From: Anaerolineae bacterium | GTDB taxonomy: Bacteria > Chloroflexota > Anaerolineae > Promineifilales > Promineifilaceae | Assembly (NCBI GenBank): GCA_023954475.1 | Contig: JAMLHW010000006.1 | Location: forward strand, 124,001-188,000 | Length of the DNA: 64,000 nucleotides | Direction: 5' to 3' | In this document: positions 31,906 to 38,644 of the stretch, piece by piece | Layout of the letters: every line of letters begins with the position of its first letter | Numbering within the stretch: position 1 is the first letter of the stretch | Notes under the pieces: generated by a model | What the model saw: the letters and a program-made list of their open reading frames with translations, nothing else | The model's database searches: none | Told to the model about the DNA's origin: nothing | Made by a program: the position numbers and the translations under genes

Positions 31906-32631
31906 GTGCCAGACTTTATGCAGATCATCAATATTGCCATCCTGCTCCTGGCTTTGTTTTTCCTCGTATTGGCTGTCGTTTATTTTGTGCGTGGGTTTGT
32001 TGCTCGTGGGGACACAAAGGGACGCCGTTACAATGTGGGGCGACAAGAAGCGCGTATCTCGATGTTGGGATCGTGGCTTACCGCCATTGTGTTTTCCGCA
32101 ATAGGCATTGTGTTGTTGGTTATTGGCGGTGCCAGCATATTGCCGTCAGGTGCATCGGCCGAAGAGCCGGTTGCCTTACCTTCGCCAACGCTCCCCGTTA
32201 GTACCCCAACAGAAGATCGAGATGCCGCCGGTTCCATGCCAACACCCACAGCAGACGCGACGCCCACAGCACCGCCTACACTGTCTCCAGAAGCCACTGT
32301 TACGGAGATAACCGATGATGCGCTTGCCCCGCCACCGACTTTCACGCCTGCTGCCAGTGACACAACTGACACAACACCAGCCCCTGTCGCGACACCGGTA
32401 GAGACACCCACACAACCGCCGAATTCAGCACCATCAGCACGGGTTAACAGCCCCAATGGGCTATACATGCGTACTGTGCCGGGTGGTGAAGTGGTAGAGT
32501 TGATAGCGCATGAAGCAATTGTCTTTTTATTGGAAGGGGAGCAGACAGTTGATAATGTTGTGTGGCGTTTGGTGGAATCTCAGAATGGAAATCGGGGATG
32601 GGTTGCAGCCGATTATCTGGTCAACGAATAG
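31906..32631 (+). CDS. Membrane protein with Pro/Thr-rich linker and SH3b domain
   Basis: 241 aa from a GTG at 31906; an ATG at 31918 is an alternative. There are two N-terminal transmembrane helices (about 5-30 and 50-75), a low-complexity Pro/Thr/Ala linker (about 80-175) and a C-terminal SH3b-like domain (NSPNGLYMRTVPGGEVVELI ... GNRGWVAADYLV). SH3b domains often bind peptidoglycan or other surface ligands. The linker type is common in Chloroflexota envelope proteins. It lies 20 bases after mazG and may be cotranscribed; no functional link is evident. Confidence 0.75.
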   Translation: MPDFMQIINIAILLLALFFLVLAVVYFVRGFVARGDTKGRRYNVGRQEARISMLGSWLTAIVFSAIGIVLLVIGGASILPSGASAEEPVALPSPTLPVSTPTEDRDAAGSMPTPTADATPTAPPTLSPEATVTEITDDALAPPPTFTPAASDTTDTTPAPVATPVETPTQPPNSAPSARVNSPNGLYMRTVPGGEVVELIAHEAIVFLLEGEQTVDNVVWRLVESQNGNRGWVAADYLVNE

Positions 32632-32637
32632 CTCGGT

Positions 32638-33321
32638 CTAGAGATTTAGCCTGGTGCGGAGTGCGGCCAGCATCTGAACAGCACGGTTGATCAATGCCTG
32701 GTTTTGTGGTTTGTTAGGCCATAGACTTGCGCCGGATGGATGGGGTAGGGGGACGATATATCGGCCGAATCCTTCAATCACGCCGTCCACCGGTCGAGCC
32801 AGCGTGATGTCATAAACAACCCCACTGTGCTCCGCAACAATTTCTGGCTCAAAGTAATGAGCTGTGCCAATAATCTGGTTCAACTTGTATTTGGCTGGGA
32901 AAAAAAGCTTGATAGCCAGCCCACCGACCGGCACAATGACGCGGGGATTGACCAATCTGATCTCTTGTTCGAGATACGGTCGGCAAAACGCCTGTTCATG
33001 CTTGTCAGGAACGCGATCCCCACGCCCAGAGCTCGTCTTGCCTGGATAACATTTAGTGACGGATGTCATGTAATGGCGTGCGCGAAAAGCGGTTTCGTCC
33101 CAGCCGGCTTCGCCCAGCCATTGGAACAGCCTTCGTCCACTGCCGGCATTGAAGGGGCGTTTAGCTTCAACCTCGGTAGCACCAGGTGCCTGCCCGATGA
33201 GCAGCAACTTTGGATCGGTGCCGCATGAGAAAACAGCGCCAGGCACGATATCGTGACCGGCATCGTAGCACAGCCGACAGGCACGCATCGTTGCGTGCAG
33301 CGCAGACAGTTGGTTTGTCAC
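32638..33321 (-). CDS. Uracil-DNA glycosylase, Fe-S type (family 4/5-like)
   Basis: 227 aa. Motif A (LLIGQAPGATEVEAKRPF) and motif B (PLPHPSGASLW) are clear. An N-terminal CRLC pair plus two later Cys residues (VTKCYPG and AFCRPY) match the 4Fe-4S ligand pattern of family 4/5 enzymes. It removes uracil from DNA as the first step of base excision repair. Its start overlaps the stop of the GyrA-like gene by 4 bases, so the two are translationally coupled. Confidence 0.88.
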   Translation of the reverse strand: MTNQLSALHATMRACRLCYDAGHDIVPGAVFSCGTDPKLLLIGQAPGATEVEAKRPFNAGSGRRLFQWLGEAGWDETAFRARHYMTSVTKCYPGKTSSGRGDRVPDKHEQAFCRPYLEQEIRLVNPRVIVPVGGLAIKLFFPAKYKLNQIIGTAHYFEPEIVAEHSGVVYDITLARPVDGVIEGFGRYIVPLPHPSGASLWPNKPQNQALINRAVQMLAALRTRLNL

Positions 33322-34382
33322 GATGCCTCGTCGGTTGCTTCCCTACTGTTAGTAGAGCAGGAAACGACGGCAACGACTTCGTCACCGCGCAGGCTCATAC
33401 AGTTAACACCCTGGACGACGCCGGTTTTTGTCGGAACCTCATCGGCCGAAAAGCGAATGATTTTACTCAAGCGCGAAATCAAGAACAGATCATCTCCGGC
33501 TGACACAGAGGTCGCACCTACCAGATGTTCAGTTTTGATGACGACTTTTCCACCGGCGCCCGGCGCCTTGTTTTTGCGAAAGCCCTCCATTAACCGCACT
33601 GTTCCTTTACCATCATCACTCTGCAAGAAGACACCACCGTCGTCATGGGTAGCTACTACAGCAATCGCTTCATCATCAGGTGCAACGCGCAATCCCAGGC
33701 AGCCGCGTGCCGGAATTTGCTGTTCGTCGAAGCGAATGCCGAGCCCATTTCGTGTAGCGATAAAGATATCACCATCACCATTGCTCCAGGCGGCCCCGGT
33801 CAAATAGCCACCCTCGCTGAGTTTGTGAAATCGCTGGCCCTGATACATGCGTGGACCCAGGTAAGTTCGCTGTACGCGTCGCGTCCACCCGCGTTGACTG
33901 ACCAGCAATACATATGTGCCGCCATTTTCGGGTAGGGCAGCGATAATGCGCTCGTCGGCAAGCAGGTTAAGTGGTTCGACCAATGATGTGCCACGCCCTC
34001 GCAGTTGGGTTTCCGGTAGTTTTGCGACCGGATAGCGAAATGCGCGTCCCTGATCGGTAAACAGGATTATGCTCTCGTCGACATCGGCAATTGCCAACAA
34101 GGCGGGCGGCGCTTCTTCGTCTGTTTCAATGTCGAAGACGCCCATACCGGCGCGTCGTTGGCGTAGATAATTGTGACGCGGTGTGCGTTTGGCGCAATTA
34201 TCGGCCGTAATTGAAATGACGTTCACTGTTGTTGGTGGTTCACTGGGCTCAAGAGGCGTAGTTTCGGCCGATGTGCGGTCCGTTTTCGCACTGCGTAGTT
34301 GCGACAATTCATCTTCCAGATATTCGATGTAGGCTACAATCGCCGGTTTTTCGGCCGAAAGGTCCGGACGCATTACTTCCAT
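33318..34382 (-). CDS. Orphan GyrA/ParC C-terminal-domain-like protein
   Basis: 354 aa. A short coiled segment (IVAYIEYLEDELSQLRSA) and variable linker precede a beta-pinwheel of repeated blades: VDESIILFTDQGRAFRYPVAKLP, GIRFDEQQIPARGCLG, IIRFSADEVPTKTGVVQG. These are the blade signatures of the gyrase A C-terminal DNA-wrapping domain. The catalytic breakage-reunion domain is absent. It may wrap DNA or bind a topoisomerase subunit. It is coupled by a 4-base overlap to a uracil-DNA glycosylase gene and separated from clpC by a terminator. Confidence 0.8.
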   Translation of the reverse strand: MEVMRPDLSAEKPAIVAYIEYLEDELSQLRSAKTDRTSAETTPLEPSEPPTTVNVISITADNCAKRTPRHNYLRQRRAGMGVFDIETDEEAPPALLAIADVDESIILFTDQGRAFRYPVAKLPETQLRGRGTSLVEPLNLLADERIIAALPENGGTYVLLVSQRGWTRRVQRTYLGPRMYQGQRFHKLSEGGYLTGAAWSNGDGDIFIATRNGLGIRFDEQQIPARGCLGLRVAPDDEAIAVVATHDDGGVFLQSDDGKGTVRLMEGFRKNKAPGAGGKVVIKTEHLVGATSVSAGDDLFLISRLSKIIRFSADEVPTKTGVVQGVNCMSLRGDEVVAVVSCSTNSREATDEAS

Positions 34383-34440
34383 GATCTGAATGTCTCCCTG
34401 TCAAAAACTTTGCTCCAATTGTAAGCAAGTTTTGCTCAAA

Positions 34441-34473
34441 GAAAAAGCGCCCTCACAATTGTAAGAGCGCTTT
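34441..34473 (-). terminator. Rho-independent terminator after clpC
   Basis: On the minus strand a long GC-containing stem (arms within 34444-34473, with some G-T pairs) is followed by a run of T residues. It lies just downstream of the clpC stop and upstream of the GyrA-like gene. Confidence 0.8.
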
Positions 34474-34500
34474 ACAAATATAACTAAATCGATCGGCCGA

Positions 34501-37011
34501 TTACAGTGGTAATGCCGGTTCTTCCATTTCTTCGTCTTGATTCTCGAGTTTGCGCAAGACGATACCGTCATCCTCAACATACACGACAATGGTGTCGCCT
34601 GCACTGAAACGCTCAGACAGCATCGCATCAGACAATTTGTCTTCCACTTCGACCTGGATCAAGCGGCGTAGCGGTCGGGCACCGAATTCCGGATCATATC
34701 CGTGTTTGCCCAGCCAATCTTTTGCTTCCGGTGTTGATTCGATAATCAAGTCATAGTCGATCAATCTTTCATTTAGCTGTGAAAGCAGAATATCAACAAT
34801 TGAGATGATGTTTTCTTCGGTCAACTGTCGGAAGACAATCACACTGTCGACACGGTTCACAAATTCGGGCCGGAAGCGACGCTTTAACTCTTCCATCAAC
34901 TTCTTGTGCATTTCGCGATGGGCACTTTCTGCTTCAGTTACCGGATCACCAGTAAAAGCGAAGCCTAAGTCCGGTGTGCGTTTCAATGTCGAGGCACCGA
35001 CATTTGATGTCATAATGATCATGGCATTGCGGAAATCAACCATGTGACCTTTCGAGTCCGAAAGATGACCTTCTTCCATGATTTGCAGCAAGATGTTGAA
35101 CACATCCGGATGGGCTTTCTCGATTTCGTCAAACACCACAATGGAGTAGGGACGACGGCGCAATGCCTCAGTAAGCTGACCTGCATCTTCGTAACCGACG
35201 TATCCGGGTGGTGATCCAATCAAGCGTGAAACGGTGTGGCGTTCCATGAACTCCGACATGTCAAGATGCACCAATGCTTCCTCACTGCCGAACAGGAATT
35301 TGGCCAATGTTTTCGTTAATTCAGTTTTGCCGACGCCTGTTGGGCCGAGAAAGATAAATGAGCCTATCGGCCGACGTGGATTTTTGAGTCCGGCTCGAGC
35401 ACGTCGCACCGCTTTGGCGATTGCTGTGATGGCCTCATCCTGGCCGACGATGTTGAGTCGCAATTCATCTTCCATGCGCAACAAACGGGATGATTCCGCT
35501 TCTGTCAACTGGAATAGGGGAATACCAGTCCACATTGACAGCACCTCAGCGATATCCTCCGGTGCAACGTGCAGCCGATTTTCTTCTTCATCGACGGCAC
35601 GCATCGCATCGAGTCGATGCTGTAATTCTTCCTCATCTTCGCGCAACGCATTGGCGCGATCGTATAGGCCTTCTTCTACTGCCTGGTCACGTTCTTCACG
35701 GATTTCGCGCAACTCTTCAAAGATTTCGCGCATATCACCGACTTGCGTACCCCGGTACAGACGGACACGCGATGAACTTTCGTCGATCAGGTCGATGGCT
35801 TTGTCAGGCAAAAAGCGTTCGGTAACGTATCGTGTCGATAATTTCACCGCCGCTTCGATGGCCTCGTCGGTAATGACCAGATTATGGTGTTGCTCGTAAG
35901 CGCTTTTGATGCCAAGCAAAATCGATACAGCATCTTCGGGCGATGGCTCGTCAACGCGCACAGGTTGGAAACGGCGCTCGAGGGCAGCATCGCTTTCTAT
36001 ATTTTTGCGGTATTCATCGAGTGTCGTTGCACCAATGCACTGCAATTCACCACGCGCCAGGGAGGGTTTGAGTATATTAGCCGCATCGACTGAACTGCCG
36101 GCAGAACCGGCACCGACCAGCATGTGGACTTCGTCGATGAAGAGGATAGCGTCGCTGGCTTTGAGTTCATCGATGACGCGTTTAAGGCGTTCCTCAAATT
36201 GGCCGCGATACATTGTTCCAGCTACGAGGCTGCCGACATCAAGTTGTAAGACACGTTTGTTAAGCAATGTATCAGGAACTTTGCCTTCAACAATGCGCTG
36301 CGCCAGTCCTTCGACGATGGCTGTTTTGCCGACGCCGGGTTCACCGACGAGGGCAGGGTTGTTTTTGGTGCGCCGGGCCAGTACCTGAATAACGCGTTCG
36401 ATTTCGGTTTTTCGGCCGATAACCGGATCCAGCTTACCTTCTTCCGCCATTTTGGTCAGATCTGTCGCCAACTGATCGACGAGAGGCGTTTTGCTCTTTT
36501 CTTTGGTACTGCGGGTAGGCGTACGTTGTGTTTTAGGTTTGCTTTCAGAACTGCTTTGAGGACTTTCACGCAAAACACGTCGTGTTTGACGACGCACCTG
36601 TTCCGGGCTGACGCCGAATTTGCGCAGCACTTCGATAGCAACGCCATCATTTTGCCGCACCATGCCGAGCAACAAATGCTCGGTACTAACATAATGCTGT
36701 TGCATGCGCTTCGCTTCTTCCAGCGCATATTCCAACAGACGCTTTGTGGTTGGTGAGAGTTCGATCTTTGAAAACGGTGTACTTGCGCTTTTGCCGCCAG
36801 ACAAACGTTCCACAACCGCGCGAACGCGATTTGTTTCCAATCCCAACTCACGCAAGACTTTACCGGCTACCCCACCGTCTTCGCGCATCAAGCCAATCAG
36901 CAGATGTTCACTACCAATATAGCTGTGGTTCAATCGCTTGGCTTCATCTTGAGCCAGCCGAAGAACCTCGCGCGCCCGTTTTGTAAACCGTTCCCAGCTA
37001 CTTGAGTTCAC
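34501..37011 (-). CDS. clpC: ATP-dependent Clp protease ATP-binding subunit ClpC
   Basis: 836 aa from a GTG start with GAGGTG upstream. Two Clp-N repeats (about 1-145), AAA1 (GEPGVGKTA, then [10 protein letters not shown]), a middle coiled-coil region ([29 protein letters not shown], the UVR-like segment), AAA2 (GPTGVGKTE) and the C-terminal D2 small domain. It unfolds substrates for ClpP. No mcsA/mcsB/ctsR genes are adjacent, unlike Firmicutes. The 197 bases upstream hold no gene; a TATACT -10-like element is visible but no convincing -35. Confidence 0.95.
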
Positions 37012-37208
37012 AGCTTAACACCTCATATGGTTACTATTAAAGGTCTAGTATAGAGACATGATTCCATGCCCTGCTTTCGATACCTTCCAACGTTACCACC
37101 ACCACATAAAAATGCTATTAAAAAATCGTGATGTTGTGTTCAATGCTTAGATTTTCTCAGTAGATTCACCTAATCGCTGACAGGTCGAAAAGATGTCTGT
37201 ACAAGCTT

Positions 37209-38360
37209 CTATTCTGACGCCATCTCGAGATCCAGGTCGACATATTTCTCTGAGCTTACTTGCTTGAGACTCAGTCCGATCTGCTTTTGATCCACATCAA
37301 TGCGAATAATGCGTGCAGTAACCTGATCACCTTTTTTGACGACATCATTGGGGCGGCGGACGTGTTCCTCCGACAGTTCGGATATGTGAATCAACCCTTC
37401 AAAACGATAGTCGTCGTCGATGCGGGCAAATGCGCCGTATTTCGCCAACTGCGTAATCGTCACCTGGGTTAATTGACCGACCTGATAGAGATCCTCAATT
37501 TGCTCCCATGGATCGGGTTCAAGATGTTTCATGCTCAGTGCAATGCGTTGACGTTCACGATCGATATTGAGGATTGAAACTTTGACATGATCTCCGACTG
37601 AAAGCACATCCTGAGGTCGTCTGACGTGTTTGTGGCTCAGTTCAGAAAGGTGAACAAGGCCTTCGATTTCACCAATATCGACGAAAGCACCAAAATCGGT
37701 GACATTGATGACTTCACCTTCGTATATCTCGCCTTCTTGCAAGTTATCCATTCGTTCCTGGCGCAGGATATTGCGAGTAGATTTTTCTGCTTCCTGTGCA
37801 GAAAGAATCAAGCGACCACGTGCCTGGTCAGCTTCGAGCACACATGCATCCATCGTTGTCCCGATGAGTGACTGGTATTGTTGCTCTGACGTCGCGCCGC
37901 GACTGCCGTTGACTGCACTGCCAACCTGTGACGCGGGCATAAAACCACGTAAATTGAAGAGACGAACGAGTAAACCGCCCCGGTTGAACCCGGTGACACG
38001 GCATTCACATTGTTCGCCACTTTTCATCAGTTCACCGACGCGTTTCCAGTCTTCCTCTTCAGCGACCTTGAGATAGGAGAGCACGATATTGCCGTCTTCA
38101 TCTTCGGGATCAACGACAAAAACACGAATTTCTTTGCCCAAAGCCAGGAGTTTGTTCTGTGCTGTATCGAGTTGTTCGACTTCTTCAGCAGGAATGATGC
38201 CTTCGGATTTAGCACCGATATCAACGAGTAAGACGCCATTGCGGTTTGCTACTATTTCGCCAACGCGAATGTCGCCTTTTTGGGGTACGCCGAAGCTGAG
38301 GTATTGGTCCAGCAAGGCATCCATGGGGTGGCTTTCACCAGTTACAGATTGATCATTCAT
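37209..38360 (-). CDS. rpsA: S1 RNA-binding domain protein (30S ribosomal protein S1-like)
   Basis: 383 aa from the ATG at 38360 (MNDQSVTGESHPMDALLDQY) with GAGAAG upstream. Four S1 domains are visible: GEIVANRNGVLLVDIGAKSEG, CRVTGFNRGGLLVRLFNLRG, GEVINVTDFGAFVDIGEIEG and VTITQLAKYGAFARIDDDYRFEG. Four-domain S1 proteins are usual in this phylum, compared with six in E. coli. It promotes mRNA binding to the 30S. It is transcribed from the predicted promoter at 38446-38473. Confidence 0.9.
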   Translation of the reverse strand: MNDQSVTGESHPMDALLDQYLSFGVPQKGDIRVGEIVANRNGVLLVDIGAKSEGIIPAEEVEQLDTAQNKLLALGKEIRVFVVDPEDEDGNIVLSYLKVAEEEDWKRVGELMKSGEQCECRVTGFNRGGLLVRLFNLRGFMPASQVGSAVNGSRGATSEQQYQSLIGTTMDACVLEADQARGRLILSAQEAEKSTRNILRQERMDNLQEGEIYEGEVINVTDFGAFVDIGEIEGLVHLSELSHKHVRRPQDVLSVGDHVKVSILNIDRERQRIALSMKHLEPDPWEQIEDLYQVGQLTQVTITQLAKYGAFARIDDDYRFEGLIHISELSEEHVRRPNDVVKKGDQVTARIIRIDVDQKQIGLSLKQVSSEKYVDLDLEMASE

Positions 38361-38445
38361 ACACTTTTCTTCTCGAATTTTCGTATCCGATACAGGTGTA
38401 GCAATCACATGGAATGCAGTACACCCCGGACCCTAGAGTTGGTAC

Positions 38446-38473
38446 ATTATACTTTGTTTAGGTGGTTTGGCAA
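38446..38473 (-). promoter_or_regulatory. Predicted sigma-70-type promoter for the S1-like gene
   Basis: On the minus strand TTGCCA (38473-38468), a 16-base spacer and a perfect TATAAT (38451-38446), about 85 bases before the start codon. The 284-base divergent gap 38361-38644 holds this and one octamer copy (38525); no gene is supported in it. Confidence 0.65.
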
Positions 38474-38644
38474 TAATAGTTTGCCGGAGGAGCAGTTTGT
38501 TTTGGTTATGCCGATGAAGCGAATTCGGCCGATTGAAGGTGTTCGGATTCAGGTAGCTATTTTCATGCCACAGTTGTCGATGTCAGAAGCGTTTTCCTGG
38601 CGTTGGTGTTACCATTGCAAAATGTTCACACTGGAGAAAATTTC

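What the first reader, a model, noticed from the sequence alone, without database searches (positions are those of the whole stretch)
33318..34382. Stand-alone GyrA C-terminal beta-pinwheel protein coupled to a uracil-DNA glycosylase
The protein has pinwheel blades but no cleavage domain. A 4-base overlap couples it to an Fe-S-type glycosylase gene. It might wrap DNA for repair, or supply a wrapping domain to a gyrase that lacks one.
Basis: partly seen in the sequence, partly recalled or inferred. Interest (0 to 1): 0.5.

Follow-up and report, generated by a model that had tools for sequence, protein, structure and literature searches.

The report
Free-standing gyrase DNA-wrapping wheel protein
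A group of little-studied bacteria carries, besides a complete DNA gyrase, a separate gene for just the wheel-shaped part that wraps DNA; it has been kept and reshaped by evolution, perhaps as a DNA-bending protein in its own right, and the DNA-repair gene beside it looks like a chance neighbour.

Summary
The 354-aa ORF at 33318-34382(-) is a free-standing GyrA C-terminal beta-pinwheel without a cleavage domain, overlapping a uracil-DNA-glycosylase gene by 4 bases. Both proposed roles fail. The genome has a complete 886-aa GyrA with six CTD repeats, so no gyrase needs a wrapping domain. The glycosylase gene is adjacent in only 2 of 81 distinct loci (sister sequences), and its orthologue occurs in 44 of 52 family genomes regardless.

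The gene belongs to a conserved family of Chloroflexota, class Anaerolineae: one clade apart from GyrA and ParC CTDs, under purifying selection, with no constant gene partner. It keeps a GyrA-box-like motif (mostly QRRGGMG), but Lys/Arg at box position 6 and five rim arginines important for DNA binding in gyrase are gone (0 of 32, against 23 of 23 resident GyrAs). Constraint is strongest on arms 5, 6 and 1, near the loops suggested to bind DNA in gyrase. An amphipathic N-terminal helix has been added. Most likely it is a DNA-bending architectural or regulatory protein, functionally like Borrelia Gac but with its own gene. DNA binding is untested. New variant of a known kind.

The parts
33318..34382 (-). 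Stand-alone GyrA-CTD paralogue, 354 aa
34272..34346 (-). Codons 13-37: predicted N-terminal amphipathic helix, conserved in the family
33348..34235 (-). Codons 50-345: six-bladed beta-pinwheel
34140..34160 (-). Codons 75-81: GyrA-box-like motif QRRAGMG (family mostly QRRGGMG)
33318..33321 (-). 4-base overlap GTGA between the stand-alone gene and the UDG gene
32638..33321 (-). UDG-superfamily uracil-DNA glycosylase, 227 aa, GTG start; adjacency is lineage-specific
34444..34473 (-). Terminator-like stem-loop (13 pairs, loop of 4) between the Clp gene and the stand-alone gene, suggesting a separate transcription unit. The scan finds 2 such sites in the region and its shuffles give 2.4, so this is weak evidence
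34501..37011 (-). Upstream neighbour: Clp-type AAA+ protein, 836 aa

Best explanation
The gene encodes a free-standing paralogue of the GyrA C-terminal pinwheel that arose by an old duplication of the wrapping domain and then evolved a function apart from strand passage. Shown by sequence and model: pinwheel fold, no catalytic core, conserved family in Anaerolineae, purifying selection, a single clade apart from GyrA and ParC CTDs, a complete gyrase in the same genome, no constant gene partner. Inferred: it acts as a small DNA-bending architectural or regulatory protein (like Borrelia Gac) that contacts DNA mainly with the GyrA-box loop and the arms of blades 5, 6 and 1 rather than all round the rim, and it self-associates through the added N-terminal helix so that two wheels sit side by side, as in gyrase but without the cutting enzyme.
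For: Fold; the closest chain is 1suu (Z 36.0, 280 aligned, rmsd 2.1), the GyrA CTD that I recall as Borrelia's. Borrelia makes this domain as the free protein Gac (PMC10127594, section 5 and Discussion read), said there to bend DNA 180-220 degrees, complement some HU features in E. coli and repress ospC. [quoted passage not shown] Here arms 5, 6 and 1 are the conserved ones (0.755 against 0.585 for arms 2-4, p 4e-5), a contrast not seen in 23 GyrAs (0.758 against 0.772, p 0.55). One clade of 32 rows, SH-aLRT 100. dN/dS 0.06-0.23 in 9 pairs. Box-like motif Q[RKH]R[GAS]G[MI]G in 78 of 81 loci. Basic in 32 of 32 rows: K65, R66, R77, R113, R128, R217, R263, K279, K307, R310, R332; in 81 loci most of those recounted are near-invariant, but R128 is Arg in only 67 of 80. 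Helix: Y18, L22 and E23 in 79 of 79 loci that cover it, positions 15 and 19 hydrophobic in 79 of 79, 26 in 76.
Against: The columns of E. coli GyrA R612, R667, R712, 716 (Cys in E. coli, Arg in Salmonella), R766 and R817, each Arg in 23 of 23 resident GyrAs, are basic in 0 of 32 stand-alone rows, and the blade-4 arm is 5 residues shorter; R615 stays basic in 22 of 32. [quoted passage not shown] Box position 6 is K/R in 23 of 23 GyrAs and 0 of 32 here. Charge gives no clear support: over the first 290 residues the mean net charge is +3.0 (stand-alone) and +1.0 (GyrA), the window's pinwheel is -2, the arms have about the same net charge and fewer K/R (sum of means 18.1 against 21.3). No DNA-binding, dimer or expression data exist. 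The gene is missing from 21 of 52 family genomes, 12 of them at least 90% complete.
Confidence: 0.45

Rival explanations
1. Gyrase modulator: the free pinwheel binds GyrA, GyrB or gyrase-bound DNA and changes supercoiling or protects gyrase, possibly together with gyrase-binding pentapeptide-repeat proteins.
For: In three genomes of one genus (L096, L105, L116) the next gene, overlapping by 1 or 4 bases, is a pentapeptide-repeat protein closest to the McbG-like protein 2xt4 (E 1e-38). PMC7897471 (passages) says AlbG and McbG are thought to protect gyrase. Such proteins (E <= 1e-20) are found in 14 of 31 genomes with the stand-alone gene and 3 of 21 without (Fisher p 0.034).
Against: The adjacency is probably one event. 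The co-occurrence is not corrected for relatedness, is p 0.053 in genomes at least 90% complete, and both traits go with larger genomes (p 0.005 and 0.051). The window's own genome has no such protein at that threshold. No GyrA/ParC core lies among the neighbour ORFs of the 82 loci; GyrB was not looked for there.
Confidence: 0.22
2. The pinwheel has become a protein- or RNA-binding scaffold and no longer binds DNA.
For: Loss of the gyrase rim arginines and of part of the blade-4 arm, fewer K/R in the arms, and constraint concentrated on one side of the wheel.
Against: The box-like loop and many other basic positions stay near-invariant; the constrained side is the one with loops suggested to bind DNA in GyrA CTDs (PMC3510516).
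Confidence: 0.22
3. DNA-repair partner of the uracil-DNA glycosylase.
For: 4-base overlap in the window and a 17-base overlap between the called ORFs in L039.
Against: Adjacent in 2 of 81 loci; independent co-occurrence; 16 other loci of the 81 have some other same-strand downstream ORF called as overlapping.
Confidence: 0.05
4. Supplies the wrapping domain to a CTD-less gyrase.
For: None found.
Against: The only PF00521 match of the genome is a full 886-aa GyrA with six CTD repeats.
Confidence: 0.01
5. A decaying gyrA fragment or mis-called ORF.
For: No cleavage domain.
Against: Orthologues at 37-60% identity, dN/dS 0.06-0.23, own clade, own N-terminal helix.
Confidence: 0.01

Closest known systems
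Gac of Borrelia burgdorferi (GyrA C-terminal domain made as a separate protein; PMC10127594)
   Same: Pinwheel alone, no cleavage core, full GyrA also present; closest solved structure is 1suu, the Borrelia CTD by recall (Z 36.0)
   Different: Gac is translated from inside gyrA; this is a separate, strongly diverged gene with an added N-terminal helix. DNA binding is shown for Gac, untested here
GyrA C-terminal domain of DNA gyrase (PF03989; 1zi0, 3l6v, 3uc1, 9gbv)
   Same: Fold, repeats, box-like motif in the first arm
   Different: Not fused to the cleavage core; box position 6 and rim arginines changed; blade-4 arm shortened
ParC C-terminal domain (topoisomerase IV; 1zvt, 1wp5)
   Same: Fold
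   Different: The family keeps a box-like motif, which the 18 second-copy (ParC-like) rows lack, and is a separate clade
HU and other nucleoid-associated proteins
   Same: Proposed role only
   Different: A different protein family; HU (PF00216) is found in only 7 of 52 family genomes, with no association with the stand-alone gene

Membership tests
DNA gyrase subunit A / ParC | Cleavage-core domain PF00521 (DNA_topoisoIV) | tested here: not met
   Pfam finds only DNA_gyraseA_C in the protein; the genome's single PF00521 match is at another locus
GyrA C-terminal beta-pinwheel domain | PF03989 repeats above cut-off | tested here: met
   79 bits against a cut-off of 27, four stretches
GyrA C-terminal beta-pinwheel domain | Six-bladed pinwheel fold | tested here: met
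   AlphaFold2 pLDDT 90.7; VIA Z 36.0 to 1suu
Wrapping-competent GyrA CTD | GyrA box Q(R/K)RGG(R/K)G | tested here: not met
   Window QRRAGMG; position 6 is K/R in 0 of 32 rows and M or I in 80 of 80 covered loci. Consensus from PMC7210945 and PMC3510516; the Borrelia box also deviates
Wrapping-competent GyrA CTD | Rim arginines R612, R667, R716, R766, R817 | tested here: not met
   0 of 32 rows basic at these columns against 23 of 23 GyrAs; sequence alignment only, a shift of one residue is possible. Blade-1 R556 not mapped
Wrapping-competent GyrA CTD | DNA wrapping in vitro | not testable with these tools
   Needs purified protein
Gac-type free GyrA CTD | CTD made as a separate protein beside an intact GyrA | tested here: met
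   Separate ORF; intact 886-aa GyrA. That it is translated is inferred
Gac-type free GyrA CTD | Encoded inside gyrA from an internal start | tested here: not met
   Own gene on contig C23; gyrA is on C24
Gac-type free GyrA CTD | DNA bending, HU complementation, promoter repression | not testable with these tools
   Experiments needed
Uracil-DNA glycosylase superfamily (neighbour gene) | PF03167 above cut-off | tested here: met
   100.1 bits against a cut-off of 24.3
Family-4 UDG / UdgX (neighbour gene) | NCBIfam family cut-offs | tested here: not met
   61.1 of 250, 59.4 of 125.3, 56.1 of 189.95 bits

The most novel reading that the evidence does not exclude
Many Anaerolineae carry a new class of chromosome protein: a free, possibly dimeric pinwheel built from a duplicated gyrase wrapping domain, which bends DNA with one side of the wheel (blades 5-6-1) and works as a nucleoid-associated protein or regulator in cells that mostly lack a recognisable HU, independent of gyrase.
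Probability: 0.28. Interest if true: 0.72.

Novelty: new variant of a known kind. Interest (0 to 1): 0.45.

Why it matters
The only free GyrA CTD that my paper searches turned up is Borrelia Gac, and its authors write that it is not known whether a separate CTD protein is unique to B. burgdorferi (PMC10127594, Discussion). A dedicated, conserved gene family in another phylum would suggest that the wrapping wheel has been recruited more than once as a protein of its own, and its natural sequence changes (box position 6, rim arginines) give a ready experiment on which parts of the wheel are needed to wrap, bend or merely fold.

Tried and rejected
Missing gyrase CTD: rejected. Conserved UDG pairing: rejected. 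Anticorrelation with HU, as expected if the protein replaces HU: not seen (6 of 31 genomes with the stand-alone gene have HU, 1 of 21 without, p 0.22). HU is scarce throughout (23 of 148 relatives), so HU absence is context, not evidence. A constant operon partner: none seen. The commonest neighbours are biotin-dependent carboxylase subunits, a CYTH-like protein and an M20-type amidohydrolase, in 12-18 of the 82 clustered loci; these names were recognised by eye, not searched. More positive charge than GyrA: an apparent difference over whole CTDs (+3.1 against -5.6) shrinks to +3.0 against +1.0 once GyrA's C-terminal tail is left out, so I do not use it. A mobile origin: of the ten phage rows shown (35 records matched) all are 26-28% identical, two annotated gyrA and eight unannotated; not followed. 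Rfam found nothing at 32000-38500. The sigma-70 scan was at background (2 found, 1.9 expected). Which CTD (GyrA or ParC) the family came from: the tree is a quick one, midpoint-rooted, with a stem of 2.28, and ParC has no support as one group; only the box-like motif points to GyrA. Foldseek and VIA rows at Z 5 and below (kelch, WD40) were taken as general propeller likeness.

Rows dropped before counts: the partial orthologues L066 and L067 and the distant L071 and L072 were left out of the tree and of the rim and arm counts; L066 and L067, but not L071 and L072, were left out of the charge means (34 rows). L132 was dropped as the same record as L039. A first count of the box and helix used a pattern that required Tyr and Leu and read 5 boxes out of register; it is replaced by the alignment-based count (81 loci; 80 cover the box, 79 the helix). 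ORFs were called mechanically from the first start codon, so overlaps with downstream genes may be overstated. Five of 81 loci (L112, L123, L127, L137, L145) have under 700 bases downstream, so a UDG gene there could have been missed. The phylum sample of 400 held few genomes of the window's family, and its match list is cut. Papers: searches listed no paper on a stand-alone GyrA-CTD family in Chloroflexota (titles and abstract starts seen); one search returned nothing; only the held open-access library was searched.

Full report
WHAT IS THERE. The ORF at 33318-34382 on the minus strand codes for 354 aa. Its only Pfam family is DNA_gyraseA_C (E 1.7e-22, 4 stretches). The NCBIfam gyrA models align only over their C-terminal 300 positions. 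PDB sequence matches are GyrA CTDs (3l6v E 7.7e-27, 1zi0 E 2.4e-22). An AlphaFold2 model from a 28-row alignment (A1) has mean pLDDT 90.7: an N-terminal helix at residues 13-37, a low-confidence linker, then six blades at about 50-345. Foldseek's first 20 hits are all GyrA or ParC. VIA-align gives Z 36.0 to 1suu (280 aligned, rmsd 2.1; the Borrelia CTD by recall), 23-33 to other GyrA chains and to the topoisomerase IV chains 1wp5 and 9a68, 15.6-16.6 to E. coli ParC, then drops to Z 5.0 for a kelch domain. The Borrelia CTD is described as flat, those of E. coli, X. campestris and M. tuberculosis as spirals (PMC3510516, passages); a match to the flat form in a predicted model should be taken with care.

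THE OVERLAP AND THE NEIGHBOUR. The stop codon TGA and the glycosylase start GTG share the four bases GTGA at 33318-33321. The neighbour belongs to the UDG superfamily (PF03167, E 1.5e-28), nearest in the PDB to 1ui0 and family-4 enzymes (best E 2.1e-11), but below the NCBIfam cut-offs. Upstream, the Clp-type gene is followed by a 13-pair stem-loop with a T-rich tail (34473-34444), which suggests that the stand-alone gene starts its own transcription unit; that scan finds no more such sites (2) than its shuffles (2.4).

THE TWO PROPOSED ROLES FAIL. The genome (5.12 Mb, 26 contigs, 97.9% complete) has one PF00521 match: an 886-aa GyrA on contig C24 with six CTD repeats over the cut-off and the box QGRGGKG. 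The window's protein is on C23. Of 81 distinct loci with the stand-alone gene (window, L039 and 80, less one duplicate record), the UDG gene is adjacent in 2; a third, L141, has a weak UDG-like match 2.7 kb away. The two are sisters in the tree (SH-aLRT 99), so one rearrangement explains both. UDG orthologues (E <= 1e-10) occur in 44 of 52 family genomes: 27 of 31 with the stand-alone gene and 17 of 21 without (p 0.70). In 18 of 81 loci some same-strand downstream ORF is called as overlapping the gene, and in 16 of these it is not the UDG. The repair link therefore rests on what looks like a chance neighbour.

THE FAMILY. A search of 148 relatives gave stand-alone ORFs (open frames of 345-440 aa, plus one 211-aa fragment at a contig end) at 37-60% identity, the window's own included, in 34 genomes: 31 of 52 in its family and 3 others of the class. 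In family genomes at least 90% complete it is 22 of 34, so absence is often real (G023, 99% complete in 3 contigs, lacks it). The pattern-based scan of named genomes confirmed 99 relatives and listed 80; the titles name Chloroflexota groups, nearly all metagenome assemblies, plus one titled only 'bacterium isolate RI_153' and the cultured Ornatilinea apprima P3M-1 (class Anaerolineae). In a draw of 400 Chloroflexota every listed match other than the window's own scored below 200 bits and lay in an open frame of at least 454 aa, typically full-length gyrA. A quick maximum-likelihood tree of 32 stand-alone, 23 GyrA and 18 ParC-like (second-copy) CTDs puts the stand-alone proteins in one clade (SH-aLRT 100, stem 2.28). 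Nine close pairs have dN/dS 0.06-0.23: a working protein.

WHAT HAS CHANGED. The GyrA box is Q(R/K)RGG(R/K)G; [quoted passage not shown] In a joint alignment with the E. coli CTD, the columns of R612, R667, R712, 716, R766 and R817 are Arg in 23 of 23 resident GyrAs and basic in 0 of 32 stand-alone proteins, and the blade-4 arm is five residues shorter. R615 stays basic in 22 of 32. Box position 6 is K/R in 23 of 23 against 0 of 32. Across 81 loci the motif Q[RKH]R[GAS]G[MI]G is found in 78, with M or I at position 6 in all 80 that cover it. The family has conserved basic residues of its own, some one or two places from a lost arginine: R128 (67 of 80 loci; 32 of 32 in the smaller set), K272 (79 of 81) and K319 (76 of 80). 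Charge does not decide: mean net charge of the first 290 residues is +3.0 against +1.0 in GyrA, the window's own is -2, and the arms hold fewer K/R than GyrA's (18.1 against 21.3). Conservation is uneven: arms 5, 6 and 1 average 0.755 and arms 2-4 average 0.585 (p 4e-5), whereas GyrA shows no difference (0.758 and 0.772, p 0.55); without seven divergent rows it is 0.80 and 0.65. So one contiguous side of the wheel, including the box loop, is under the strongest constraint, and it largely coincides with the loops of blades 1, 6, 5 and 4 whose charge suggests DNA binding in GyrA CTDs (PMC3510516, passages). The same passages say that the Borrelia box also deviates from the consensus and that a CTD without the box still binds DNA but does not bend it. 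These are sequence-alignment results; a shift of one residue in a loop could still place a basic side chain on the rim.

THE ADDED HELIX. Before the pinwheel lies a short conserved segment; the GyrA linker in the same place reads quite differently. In the 79 loci that cover it, Tyr18, Leu22 and Glu23 are invariant, positions 15 and 19 are always hydrophobic, 26 in 76 and 29 in 56, a 4-3-4 spacing typical of a coiled coil. Self-association is inferred, not shown.

HOW IT MOST LIKELY WORKS. The nearest precedent is Gac: B. burgdorferi makes the CTD as a 35-kDa protein from inside gyrA; Gac bends DNA by 180-220 degrees, complements some features of HU in E. coli and represses ospC (PMC10127594, section 5 and Discussion read). 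By analogy I favour a DNA-bending architectural or regulatory protein with contacts centred on blades 5-6-1, probably a dimer (confidence 0.45). The main rivals are a gyrase modulator and a wheel that has lost DNA binding. For the first there is one lead: in three genomes of one genus the next gene is a McbG/AlbG-type pentapeptide-repeat protein overlapping by 1-4 bases, a class thought to protect gyrase (PMC7897471, passages). The two genes co-occur more than expected (14 of 31 against 3 of 21, p 0.034), but this is uncorrected for relatedness, is p 0.053 in genomes at least 90% complete, and both go with larger genomes. For the second, the lost rim arginines count.

VERDICT. Real, conserved, and not found described in the papers I could search; a new variant of a known kind (a free GyrA CTD), not a repair system and not a gyrase prosthesis.

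Noticed in passing
L096, L105, L116 (downstream of the stand-alone gene): McbG/AlbG-like pentapeptide-repeat protein overlapping the stand-alone GyrA-CTD gene by 1-4 bases in three genomes of one genus; co-occurrence p 0.034, uncorrected.
   Followed up: partly
G000 (whole genome): Only one GyrA/ParC-type (PF00521) and one PF00204 match found, so no separate topoisomerase IV A subunit was seen, while most family genomes have two PF00521 matches but a single PF00204 match.
   Followed up: no
L191, L192 (G007, G027): A very diverged GyrA/ParC-like protein on the same contig as a second PF00204 (GyrB-like) match (also in G008), on long branches in the tree.
   Followed up: no
L071:3434-4456, L072:1848-2864: More distant stand-alone CTD-like ORFs (24-32% identity over part of the length), each with an Hsp70-like ORF of about 450 aa downstream (name by eye): perhaps a second free-pinwheel family.
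   Followed up: no
family genomes (52): HU-type proteins (PF00216) are found in only 7 of 52 family genomes and 23 of 148 relatives, so these bacteria mostly seem to lack a recognisable HU.
   Followed up: partly
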